Part shown: positions 44,539-55,783 of the stretch, piece by piece | Layout: each line of letters begins with the position of its first letter | Position numbering within the stretch: the stretch's first letter is position 1 | Assembly (NCBI RefSeq): GCF_003173755.1 | Contig: NZ_CP029553.1 | Span: 2,740,501-2,804,500 of the forward strand | Reading direction: 5' to 3' | DNA from: Methylobacterium terrae | GTDB lineage: Bacteria; Pseudomonadota; Alphaproteobacteria; Rhizobiales; Beijerinckiaceae | Length of the DNA: 64,000 nt | Program-made: the position numbers and the translations under genes | The notes under the pieces: generated by a model | Told to the model about the DNA's origin: nothing | The model's database searches: none | What the model saw: the letters and a program-made list of their open reading frames with translations, nothing else

Positions 44539-46509
44539 ATGACGGCGAGCGGGTTTCTGGCTGCGATGGCATTGGTGAAGAAGGCGAAGCTCGCGGATCG
44601 CGAAGCGTCGGACCGCCGGGACGGTACGCCCGAGGCGCCCGCTCCCACGCAGGCGCCCGCCCCGGCGGCCCGGCGGGGCCGGACCCGCGAGCGGGTGGGA
44701 ACCCGCCGGCAGAAGGCGACCGAGCGTCTGGGCGCCGCCACCGAGGAGCTGGCCGCCGGCGTCACCGAGGCTTCCGCCGCGGCCGAGGAATTGCGCCGGG
44801 CGATGGAGCAGATCGCCGGCGGGGCCGAGGAGGCGGCGGGCGCGGCGCAGGAATCGCTCTCGGCGGTCGCGGCGATCGTCGGGCGCCTCGGCGAGGCGCG
44901 GGAGCGGGCCGACCTGTCGCGCCGGCGCACCGCCGCGTTCCAGTCGCTGCTCGCCGAGGCGAGCGCCCAGGCGACCCAGTCGATCGCCGCGATCGAGGCC
45001 GAGGCCGGGCGCCAGGACGCGACGGTCGCCCTCGTCGACGAGCTCGACCGGGGGGCGGCCAGCATCGGCGAGGTCACCGGAACGGTCGCGGGAATCGCCG
45101 ACCAGACCGGGCTCGTCGCCCTCAACGCCGCCCTCGAGGCGGCGCGGGCCGGGGAGCACGGGCGGGGCTTCGCGGTGGTGGCCGACGAGGTCCGGGCGCT
45201 GGCCGAGACCGCGGAGGCGAGCGCCGGCGAGGTGCGCGAGCGGGTGGACGCGATCCGGGCCGAGATCCGGGCGCTCGGGCAGGCGATCCGAGACGCCGCC
45301 GCGCGGGCGGCGGCCGAGGCGGCGGCGGGCGGGCGCGTCGCCCGGCAGCTGGAGGAGGCGCGGACCGATCTCGGCGCGCTCGCCGAGGGCGCGCAGGAGA
45401 TCCTGGCCGCCGCCCTGCAGGCGGAGGCGACCACCCGCGAGGCGCAGGCCGGCGCCGAGGAGGTCGCGGCCGCCGCCGAGCAGCAGGCCGCCGCCGCCGA
45501 GGAGGCGCAGGCCGCGGTGGCGCAGCAGACCGAGGCCCTCGAGCAGGGCCAGGCCACCGCCGAGGCCCTGGCCGCCCTGGCGGAGTCCCTGCGCGGATCG
45601 GCCGCCGGGCGCGCGAGCCCCGAGGCGATCGGGGGTGCTGCCGACGCGCTCTCGGCCTCGATCCAGGAATTGTCCGGGGCCGCCGCCGAGATCCTGGCCG
45701 CCGTGGACCAGATCAGCCGCGGCCTGACCCTGCAGAGCGCCGCCGCCCGGCAATCCGCCGCCGCGATGAGGGAGATCGAGCGCGCCGCCGGCGGGGCCCG
45801 GGCCGGCGCCGACCGGGCGCTCGCCCGGGTCGCCGCCGTCGCGGAGGCCGTGCGGCAGGCCCGCGGCGCGATCGAGGGCCTTGCCGACGGGGTCGAGCAG
45901 GCGCTCGGCGGGATGCGCGCCTCCCTCGATCGCCTCGGGACGATCGAGGACGACGTGCGGCGCATCGAGACGATCGGGGAGGGCATCGCCCTGGTGGCGG
46001 TGCAGATCGGCATGCTGGCGGTCAGCGGCGCGATCGAGGCGACCCGGGCCGGCGAGGCGGGCCAGGGCTTCGCGGTCGTCGCCGGCGACGTCCGGACCCT
46101 GGCACGCGACGCGGCCGGCGGGGCCGACCGGATCCGGGCGACGGTGCGGGCGATCCGGGACGGGACCGCCGCCCTGCTGCGCGCCCTCGAGCGCTCCGTC
46201 GGCGCCGGCGAGGCGGAGGTGGCGAAGAACCGGGCCCTGACGGCCGGCCTCGCGGCGGTCGCGTCCGACGTGGCGGATCTGGAGCGGGCCAACCGCGCGA
46301 TCGCCGACGGGGCCGAGGCGATCCTGGGCGCGGCCGGCGAGATCGCGGCGGGCAGCCGCCAGATCGCCGCCGCCGCCGAGGAGGCCGACCGGGCCTCGAG
46401 CGAGGCCGCCACCGCCGCCCGCCAGCAGGCGCGCGGGGCCGAGGACCTGGCGGCGGCCGTGGAGGAGATCGCGCTGCTCGCCGACGAGCTGCAGGGCGCG
46501 GATGCCTGA
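44539..46509 (+). CDS. Soluble chemoreceptor-like protein with two signalling tips
   Basis: 656 residues, no membrane helix and no recognisable sensor domain; nearly all is Ala/Glu-rich coiled coil. Two MCP hairpin tips are visible. Tip 1 (about 186-222) has ADQTGLVALNAALEAARAG and GRGFAVVADEVRALAE. Tip 2 (about 481-522) has LVAVQIGMLAVSGAIEATRA and GQGFAVVAGDVRTLAR, diverged at several interaction residues. This looks like an internal duplication. The start is ATG 44539; ATG 44566 is possible. It overlaps the CheW-domain gene by 8 bp and heads the chemosensory operon. Confidence 0.85.
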   Translation: MTASGFLAAMALVKKAKLADREASDRRDGTPEAPAPTQAPAPAARRGRTRERVGTRRQKATERLGAATEELAAGVTEASAAAEELRRAMEQIAGGAEEAAGAAQESLSAVAAIVGRLGEARERADLSRRRTAAFQSLLAEASAQATQSIAAIEAEAGRQDATVALVDELDRGAASIGEVTGTVAGIADQTGLVALNAALEAARAGEHGRGFAVVADEVRALAETAEASAGEVRERVDAIRAEIRALGQAIRDAAARAAAEAAAGGRVARQLEEARTDLGALAEGAQEILAAALQAEATTREAQAGAEEVAAAAEQQAAAAEEAQAAVAQQTEALEQGQATAEALAALAESLRGSAAGRASPEAIGGAADALSASIQELSGAAAEILAAVDQISRGLTLQSAAARQSAAAMREIERAAGGARAGADRALARVAAVAEAVRQARGAIEGLADGVEQALGGMRASLDRLGTIEDDVRRIETIGEGIALVAVQIGMLAVSGAIEATRAGEAGQGFAVVAGDVRTLARDAAGGADRIRATVRAIRDGTAALLRALERSVGAGEAEVAKNRALTAGLAAVASDVADLERANRAIADGAEAILGAAGEIAAGSRQIAAAAEEADRASSEAATAARQQARGAEDLAAAVEEIALLADELQGADA

Positions 46510-55783: not shown

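What the first reader, a model, noticed from the sequence alone, without database searches (positions are those of the whole stretch)
44539..55783. Compact chemosensory operon joined to a LOV-domain kinase
Nine genes run on one strand, and seven of the eight junctions overlap or lie within about 60 bp: double-tip soluble receptor, triple CheW, CheB, CheR, CheA, STAS, single receiver, CheC-like phosphatase, LOV hybrid kinase. No flagellar gene is near. The set has an adaptation pair (CheB/CheR), a kinase and a phosphatase, but the output is not a flagellar switch. The flavin-binding kinase at the end suggests that blue light feeds into the same pathway, for example through the single-domain receiver. 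The composition and order are read from sequence; light control and a non-motility output are inference.
Basis: partly seen in the sequence, partly recalled or inferred. Interest (0 to 1): 0.75.

Follow-up and report, generated by a model that had tools for sequence, protein, structure and literature searches.

The report
F9 chemosensory operon with light-sensing kinase
A Methylobacterium operon encodes a cytoplasmic chemosensory system of the known but poorly understood class F9, in a variant that also carries a phosphatase and a kinase with a blue-light sensor domain, so light could be tried as a switch for a system whose input and output are mostly unknown.

Summary
Nine genes (window 44539-55783) run on one strand; six junctions overlap, one gap is 52 bp, one 143 bp. 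The double-tip receptor and triple CheW are the published signature of chemosensory class F9 (DosM, CheW3), so this is not a new kind of pathway. The CheA tree puts it beside A. brasilense Che2 and apart from the genome's own Che1-like (F5-type) and Che3-like (ACF-type) CheAs. Less known is the tail REC-CheC-PAS hybrid kinase. A PAS kinase starts right after CheC in 77 of 80 loci from Methylobacterium, Microvirga, Rhizobiaceae, Devosia and others. In Methylobacterium the full LOV kinase occurs in 29 of 31 genomes with this CheC and in none of the 80 without. The LOV domain itself is lineage-specific (37 of 74 relatives' kinases; 35 keep the photoreactive Cys). A non-flagellar output is supported: 4 of 51 genomes with the operon have no FliG, flagellin or hook/rod hits. 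Best model: CheA and the LOV kinase converge on the single receiver, and CheC dephosphorylates it. Array formation, phosphotransfer, light effect and output are inference.

The parts
44539..46509 (+). DosM-like receptor: two MCP signalling hairpins in one chain (tips near residues 204 and 504), no sensor domain, no transmembrane segment evident
   Evidence: Pfam MCPsignal 2 stretches; AlphaFold mean pLDDT 88.5, helices 51-353, 361-503, 505-655; a stretch of about 290 residues matches T. maritima receptor 2ch7_B, TMt 0.86
46502..47794 (+). CheW3: three concatenated CheW domains
   Evidence: Pfam CheW 3 stretches; model mean pLDDT 86
47791..48912 (+). CheB methylesterase
   Evidence: Pfam; Ser, His and Asp of the active site in 71-72 of 75 rows, most of the rest gaps
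48909..49799 (+). CheR methyltransferase
   Evidence: Pfam
49792..51822 (+). CheA (Hpt, dimerisation, ATPase, CheW); start codon uncertain (ORF opens at 49759)
   Evidence: Pfam; tree
51819..52067 (+). STAS-like protein with H-T-A-x-x-Q where the usual DSSG motif (recalled) is expected
   Evidence: Pfam STAS_2 6.5e-05; H45 78 of 78, T46 63 of 78, Q50 76 of 78 rows
52211..52621 (+). single-domain receiver (REC), likely signal output
   Evidence: Pfam; D18, D19, D64 and K113 in 81 of 81 rows
52618..53268 (+). CheC-type phosphatase with both active-site motifs
   Evidence: Pfam CheC/CheX; D14/E18/N21/P44 and E113/E117/N120/P143 in 81 of 81 rows; profile hit to solved CheC 1xkr, 2.2e-12
53321..55783 (+). 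LOV-PAS-PAS-HisKA-HATPase-REC hybrid kinase
   Evidence: Pfam; LOV Cys75, Asn107, Asn117, Gln138 invariant in 8 Methylobacterium rows, window included; solved LOV proteins match
52085..52119 (.). inverted repeat (10-bp arms, 15-base loop) in the only long gap; similar repeats seen only in close relatives L079 and L080

Best explanation
The locus encodes a class F9 chemosensory system. DosM-like rods with a signalling tip at each end, CheW3 and CheA would build a free cytoplasmic array, with CheB/CheR for adaptation. It is a variant, common in Alphaproteobacteria, whose tail, REC-CheC-PAS hybrid kinase, is a second input and output module. In Methylobacterium and Microvirga the kinase carries a LOV domain. 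Proposed flow: blue light (or redox) sets the LOV-PAS-PAS kinase, the cytoplasmic state sets the array and CheA, both phosphorylate the single receiver (and CheA may also act on the kinase's own receiver), and CheC removes the phosphate. REC~P acts on a target that is not the flagellar motor in at least some species. Shown here: composition, conservation, F9 signature, co-occurrence, catalytic residues. Inferred: array formation, light response, phosphotransfer, target.
For: F9 signature: PMC9321776 (passages) says that DosM with tandem signalling domains and a triple CheW are unique to F9; both are met. PMC7534058 (section 8 and passages) describes such arrays as purely cytoplasmic. CheA: 38 window-type rows are one clade (98*) joined to A. 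brasilense Che2 (L169) and Azospirillum B510 (87), away from the own L071 and L072 and from E. coli. Kinase link: kinase right after CheC in 77 of 80 loci; full-length LOV kinase in 29 of 31 CheC-bearing Methylobacterium genomes and 0 of 80 others; REC-CheC-kinase stays together where the MCP-STAS block is inverted or elsewhere (L075, L152). Residues of REC and CheC in 81 of 81 rows, kinase His in 75 of 75. Four kinases lack their own receiver, which points to the operon's REC as partner. Precedent: in R. centenum Che3 only the PAS hybrid kinase CheS3~P, not CheA3, phosphorylates CheY3, and CheA3 phosphorylates a CheS3 receiver (PMC3868531, abstract and discussion part 1). Non-flagellar: no FliG, flagellin or Flg_bbr_C in 4 of 51 genomes.
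Against: LOV domain absent in 37 of 74 relatives' kinases, and the Cys is lost in two Microvirga (L105, L139), so light is not a general input. Kinase absent in two Roseomonas loci with 10 kb downstream (L138, L140). Gene neighbourhood does not prove phosphotransfer. 46 of 51 genomes with the operon do have FliG, and R. centenum Che2 affects flagellum synthesis, so a flagellar role in motile species is open. The CheA-Che2 join has support 87, unstarred, in a quick tree. The loci were chosen by CheC similarity (best 80 of 183), which favours complete tails. The sister family in Methylobacterium (L065-L070, L171) has no CheC or LOV kinase.
Confidence: 0.6

Rival explanations
1. The operon is an F9 system that controls flagellum biosynthesis or number, as R. 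centenum Che2 does, with light as one modulator.
For: PMC2890560 (passages): Che2 has a tripartite CheW, and Che2 deletions are hyper-flagellated or lack flagella but stay chemotactic. 46 of 51 operon genomes have FliG and the own genome has two FliG genes.
Against: Four operon genomes lack all three flagellar families tested. A second FliG is not significantly commoner with the operon's CheC in Methylobacterium: 25 of 31 against 51 of 80, Fisher p 0.11, uncorrected for relatedness. R. centenum Che2 could not be compared by sequence here.
Confidence: 0.25
2. The LOV kinase is a separate two-component unit with REC and CheC that merely shares the transcript; the array does not talk to it.
For: The STAS/REC junction is open in nearly all loci (77 measured, median gap 88 bp, 2 overlapping), 143 bp in the window; the REC-CheC-kinase block is physically separate from the rest in L075 and L152; the ParA-type sister operons of Methylobacterium lack the tail.
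Against: MCP to CheC stand in one order in 67 of 80 loci, ten of the rest being cut by an end of the stretch. CheC is a chemotaxis-type phosphatase. A. brasilense Che2 also carries REC and CheC upstream and a second CheC-PAS kinase-REC block on the other strand.
Confidence: 0.2
3. The hybrid kinase is the main phosphodonor of REC and CheA only tunes it through the kinase's own receiver, as CheA3 does to CheS3.
For: Direct precedent in PMC3868531; 70 of 74 relatives' kinases keep the C-terminal receiver, with its Asp in 70 of 70.
Against: Four kinases lack that receiver (L111, L114, L125, L133), and two loci lack the kinase but keep REC and CheC, so CheA or another kinase must serve REC there. 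In R. centenum CheA3 carries a receiver and that of CheS3 is N-terminal, unlike here.
Confidence: 0.25

Closest known systems
Chemosensory class F9 (V. cholerae cluster I: DosM VC1403, triple CheW VC1402, CheA VC1397; from PMC7534058)
   Same: tandem signalling domains in one receptor, three CheW domains in one protein, cytoplasmic receptor, own CheA/CheB/CheR
   Different: here REC-CheC-PAS/LOV hybrid kinase and a STAS-like protein; no sequence of the V. cholerae system was compared
Azospirillum brasilense Che2 (F9 by PMC6943060)
   Same: MCP-CheW-CheB-(HEAT)-CheR-(REC)-CheA-small STAS-like protein, with CheC and receivers (L169); CheA is the nearest outside clade
   Different: REC and CheC lie upstream; the PAS kinase is on the other strand and of another kinase type (HWE-like by its REVNHRVKNS stretch, recalled); the window operon lacks HEAT and the second REC
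Rhodospirillum centenum Che2
   Same: tripartite CheW and two small unknown proteins in the cluster (PMC2890560, passages)
   Different: its CheA is fused to a receiver; no PAS kinase is mentioned in the passages read; affects flagella synthesis; not compared by sequence
Rhodospirillum centenum Che3 with CheS3 (ACF class)
   Same: PAS hybrid kinase plus CheA plus single receiver in one che cluster
   Different: different class: it is the own genome's third CheA (L072), not the window's, that groups with the Che3-type CheA of A. brasilense (L173)
LOV histidine kinases (solved blue-light-activated kinases 6ph4, 6pps, 3t50; NCBIfam PRK13557 for the kinase-receiver part)
   Same: LOV with the reactive Cys upstream of a kinase
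   Different: two extra PAS domains, CckA-like core (5idm, 5idj matches), receiver, and a fixed place after CheC; below the cut-off of every equivalog or subfamily kinase model hit

Membership tests
Chemosensory class F9 | receptor with two tandem signalling domains (DosM) | tested here: met
   MCPsignal 2 stretches; two hairpins in the model; definition from PMC9321776, passages
Chemosensory class F9 | CheW with three concatenated CheW domains | tested here: met
Chemosensory class F9 | CheA groups with F9 CheAs | tested here: inconclusive
   joins L169 and B510 at SH-aLRT 87; that L169 is Che2 rests on gene content and replicon (see full report); MiST class profiles not on hand
Chemosensory class F9 | receptor is cytoplasmic | tested here: met
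   all-helical model without sensor or membrane domain; the most hydrophobic 19 residues start at 483, in the second tip
Chemosensory class F9 | two-layered cytoplasmic array | not testable with these tools
   needs cryo-ET
ACF class | CheA groups with the A. brasilense / R. centenum Che3 type | tested here: not met
   L072, not the window, pairs with L173, which I take to be Sp7 Che3
Chemotaxis classes F5 (CheA with two CheW domains) and F7 (E. coli) | CheA groups with them, or has two CheW domains | tested here: not met
   own L071 pairs with Sp7 L174, which has two CheW stretches and a receiver; E. coli lies elsewhere too; window CheA has one CheW stretch and no receiver
LOV photoreceptor | reactive Cys and flavin-contacting Asn/Asn/Gln (recalled) | tested here: met
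   C75, N107, N117, Q138 in 8 of 8 Methylobacterium rows; Cys in 35 of 37 relatives with LOV, Gln in 33 of 37
LOV photoreceptor | binds flavin and photocycles | not testable with these tools
   needs spectroscopy
CheC phosphatase | two E-x2-N-x22-P active sites (motif recalled) | tested here: met
   81 of 81 rows

The most novel reading that the evidence does not exclude
A chemosensory array free in the cytoplasm whose second input is blue light and whose output is not motility: the LOV hybrid kinase and the F9 array compete for one receiver guarded by CheC, and lineages exchange the kinase's N-terminal sensor (LOV, PAS or none) while keeping the rest.
Probability: 0.3. Interest if true: 0.75.

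Novelty: new variant of a known kind. Interest (0 to 1): 0.5.

Why it matters
PMC7534058 (section 8) calls the V. cholerae F9 system functionally still poorly understood, and PMC9321776 (passages) asks how a purely cytoplasmic array gets its signal. A conserved hybrid kinase with a light switch in the same operon gives an input that can be turned on and off at will. Microvirga aerilata (L141) has the operon, an intact LOV Cys, no FliG, flagellin or hook/rod hits, and among the listed matches no CheA but the operon's, so its output there should be readable without a flagellum. PMC9321776 reports a complete flagellar set in 97% of its F9 species; the four exceptions found here add to the rare cases.

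Tried and rejected
Considered and dropped: (1) A new non-motility class of chemosensory system; dropped when DosM and CheW3 proved to be the F9 signature. (2) The double-hairpin receptor as a one-chain pseudo-dimer; dropped as the lead idea because DosM is described as an extended rod with a tip at each end (PMC7534058). (3) Control of a second (lateral) flagellum: no significant link in the genus (p 0.11). (4) Stress sigma-factor promoter (GGAA[CT]-N15-18-CG[TG]T, recalled): 1 of 67 upstream regions, 1 of 73 gaps, none in the window. (5) Type IV pilus retraction motor: TIGR01420 over cut-off in 0 of 6 genomes; says little about twitching. (6) IMG/VR scan with the kinase: 14 loci with other hybrid kinases, not used. 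(7) An ATGA test at the CheC stop (10 of 74) was crude and is not relied on. (9) A claim that the operon CheA is the only CheA in the flagella-less genomes (PF02895) was too strong: a more sensitive search shows a further CheA-like frame in three of four.

Novelty searches: searches listed no paper that I recognised as describing a LOV or PAS hybrid kinase with CheC in an F9 operon. The library holds only open-licence PMC papers, most listed papers were not opened, and supplementary tables (such as the F9 gene lists of PMC9321776) could not be read.

Full report
What is there. Window 44539-55783 holds nine genes on the + strand: a receptor with two MCP signalling regions, CheW3, CheB, CheR, CheA, a STAS-like protein, a single receiver, a CheC-type phosphatase, and LOV-PAS-PAS-HisKA-HATPase-REC. 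Six junctions overlap by 4-8 bases; CheC to the kinase is 52 bp; STAS to REC is 143 bp. The genome is one 6.16-Mb contig. The named relatives show it to be a Methylobacterium; M. terricola and M. platani are nearest in the CheA tree. CheW hits lie in three places: this one, L071 and L072 (stretches).

Class. The two odd proteins are the key. PMC9321776 (passages) says that tandem signalling domains in DosM and a concatenated triple CheW are unique to class F9; PMC7534058 (passages and section 8) describes the V. cholerae F9 array as purely cytoplasmic, two-layered and functionally poorly understood. Here the receptor has two MCPsignal stretches, and its model (57 sequences, mean pLDDT 88.5) is three long helical segments with tips near residues 204 and 504 and no sensor or membrane domain; about 290 residues match a T. 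maritima receptor (2ch7_B, TMt 0.86). CheW3 has three CheW stretches (model of 48 sequences, mean pLDDT 86).

The A. brasilense link. Sp7 plasmid p2 carries a ten-gene locus REC-CheC-MCP-CheW-CheB-HEAT-CheR-REC-CheA-small protein; the small protein has the H-T-A-x-x-Q stretch. I take the locus to be Che2 from its content: PMC8561660 (passage) lists CheA2, CheW2, Cle2, Cle3, CheC and Tlp32 among ten che2 proteins, and for Che4 nine proteins with CheS and two receptors, which does not fit. PMC4618731 (passage) gives one CheA on p2 of strain Sp245. The two Sp7 CheAs that I found on p1 have other architectures (L174: two CheW stretches and a receiver; L173: one CheW and a receiver). PMC6943060 (section 13) assigns Che2 to F9. 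In a CheA tree of 60 rows (of 121 CheA frames extracted), 38 window-type rows form one clade (98*) joined to L169 and Azospirillum B510 (87); own L071 pairs with L174 (Che1-like, F5 type) and own L072 with L173 (taken to be Che3, ACF) (its row name 'Sp7_Che4' for L174 is wrong). It is a quick tree with long branches for the ACF rows. PMC2890560 (passages) reports a tripartite CheW in R. centenum Che2, which affects flagellum synthesis; I could not compare it by sequence.

Distribution. One scan of GTDB species genomes with the CheC alignment gave 183 relatives, of which the best 80 were kept (L084 and L091 share a genome). MCP-CheW3-CheB-CheR-CheA-STAS-REC-CheC stand in this order in 67 of 80; of the other 13, ten are cut by an end of the stretch, L097 gives no STAS hit, and L075 and L152 are rearranged. 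The loci come from Methylobacterium, Microvirga, Rhizobiaceae, Devosia, Kaistia, Roseomonas and relatives, Sphingomonas, Acidisoma, Lichenibacterium and others. Eleven Methylobacterium loci and one Rhodospirillales locus add a HEAT-repeat protein and a second receiver, which the window lacks. A kinase starts directly after CheC in 77 of 80: 74 with a whole kinase, and 3 seen only in part near contig ends (L079, L091, L112; in L091 the frame also stops). It is missing in L138 and L140 with 10 kb downstream; L119 cannot be judged. A second family in Methylobacterium (L065-L070, L171) has MCP-CheW3-CheB-HEAT-CheR-REC-CheA, then, in the loci read gene by gene, STAS-ParA-REC-MCP, and no hit to CheC or a full LOV kinase.

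The kinase is part of the system. In 111 Methylobacterium genomes, CheC is in 31. The full-length LOV kinase (over 1500 bits) is in 29 of those; G115 gives a partial match next to CheC, and G183 is cut by a contig end. None of the 80 other genomes has it; their best match is 717 bits and covers the kinase core (tally; Fisher 1e-24, not corrected for relatedness). In M. frigidaeris (L075) the MCP-STAS block is inverted, in M. aquaticum (L152) it is not on the stretch, and REC-CheC-kinase stays together in both.

The sensor varies, the kinase does not. Of 74 relatives' kinases, 37 have a LOV domain (Methylobacterium 21, Microvirga 13, Lichenibacterium, Paeniroseomonas, one uncultured Beijerinckiaceae); 35 of these keep the Cys, while L105 and L139 have Gly. 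The phospho-His is present in 75 of 75 rows, window included, and the own receiver in 70 of 74. On a tree of 71 kinases (four without receiver left out) LOV presence needs at least four changes, which starred branches force, with several long branches warned about. Ten kinases were scanned by Pfam; the eight without LOV show PAS domains as their only sensor-type hits over cut-off. So the fixed element is a PAS kinase; LOV is what Methylobacterium and Microvirga mostly use.

Output. FliG is found in 46 of 51 genomes with the operon (50 of the 80 loci were given, plus the own genome). Of the five without, four also lack flagellin and Flg_bbr_C: Acidisoma cellulosilyticum, Microvirga aerophila, Kaistia soli, M. 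aerilata; Roseomonas harenae has both, so its FliG may be an assembly gap. Among the listed matches of a CheA search, M. aerilata shows only the operon's CheA; the other three have a further CheA-like frame (PF02895 alone had missed these). So the system persists where no flagellar hit is found, with the caveat that these are draft genomes. In Methylobacterium all 111 genomes have FliG, and a second FliG is not significantly linked to the operon's CheC.

Mechanism. CheC has both active sites, and REC its phosphorylation residues, in 81 of 81 rows, with a 4-base gene overlap in the window, so REC~P as CheC's substrate is the natural reading. In R. centenum Che3 the PAS hybrid kinase CheS3, not CheA3, phosphorylates CheY3, and CheA3 acts on a CheS3 receiver (PMC3868531, abstract and discussion part 1). 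That is a different class, but it shows that a hybrid kinase in a che cluster can serve its receiver. I therefore propose convergence of CheA and the LOV kinase on REC. The STAS-like protein has H-T-A-x-x-Q where the phospho-Ser motif is expected (H in 78 of 78, T in 63 of 78), so a simple anti-sigma-antagonist switch is unlikely to be general; its role is unknown.

Verdict. A real, conserved operon of a known class in a variant that I did not find described in the searches listed. The light link is plausible, lineage-limited and directly testable.

Noticed in passing
window 52085-52119: 10-bp perfect inverted repeat (GCCGAAAACT / AGTTTTCGGC, 15-base loop) in the STAS-REC gap; a 9-bp form is in L079 and a related one in L080; repeats of 8 or more bases in 6 of 73 gaps in all.
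   Followed up: partly
L065-L070, L171: A second CheW3-type operon in Methylobacterium: MCP-CheW3-CheB-HEAT-CheR-REC-CheA-STAS-ParA-REC-MCP (read in full in L066, L068 and L171), with a ParA ATPase in place of the CheC/kinase tail.
   Followed up: partly
L169 11343-14213: Beside A. brasilense Che2, on the other strand, a second CheC, a PAS kinase of another kinase type and a receiver: perhaps an independent recruitment of the same module.
   Followed up: no
L061 137-655 and L062: Methylobacterium sp. E-065 (G036) has two copies of the operon; in one the LOV kinase frame stops after 172 residues near the contig end.
   Followed up: no
G000:C1:2242968 and 3214939: The own genome has two FliG genes, so probably two flagellar systems; 76 of 111 Methylobacterium genomes have two.
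   Followed up: partly
window 51819-52067 and relatives: The STAS-like protein has a conserved H-T-A-x-x-Q motif where the phosphorylated serine motif is expected.
   Followed up: partly
L111, L114, L125, L133: In four Rhizobiaceae loci the kinase is about 510 residues, without a receiver; in A. vitis (L167, same plasmid as L133) the kinase core also looks different (GHDLRNPL) while the PAS pair is kept.
   Followed up: partly
window 43660-44472: An IclR-type regulator gene sits just upstream on the same strand; it is also next to MCP in seven close Methylobacterium loci (L053-L055, L074, L076, L080, L081).
   Followed up: no
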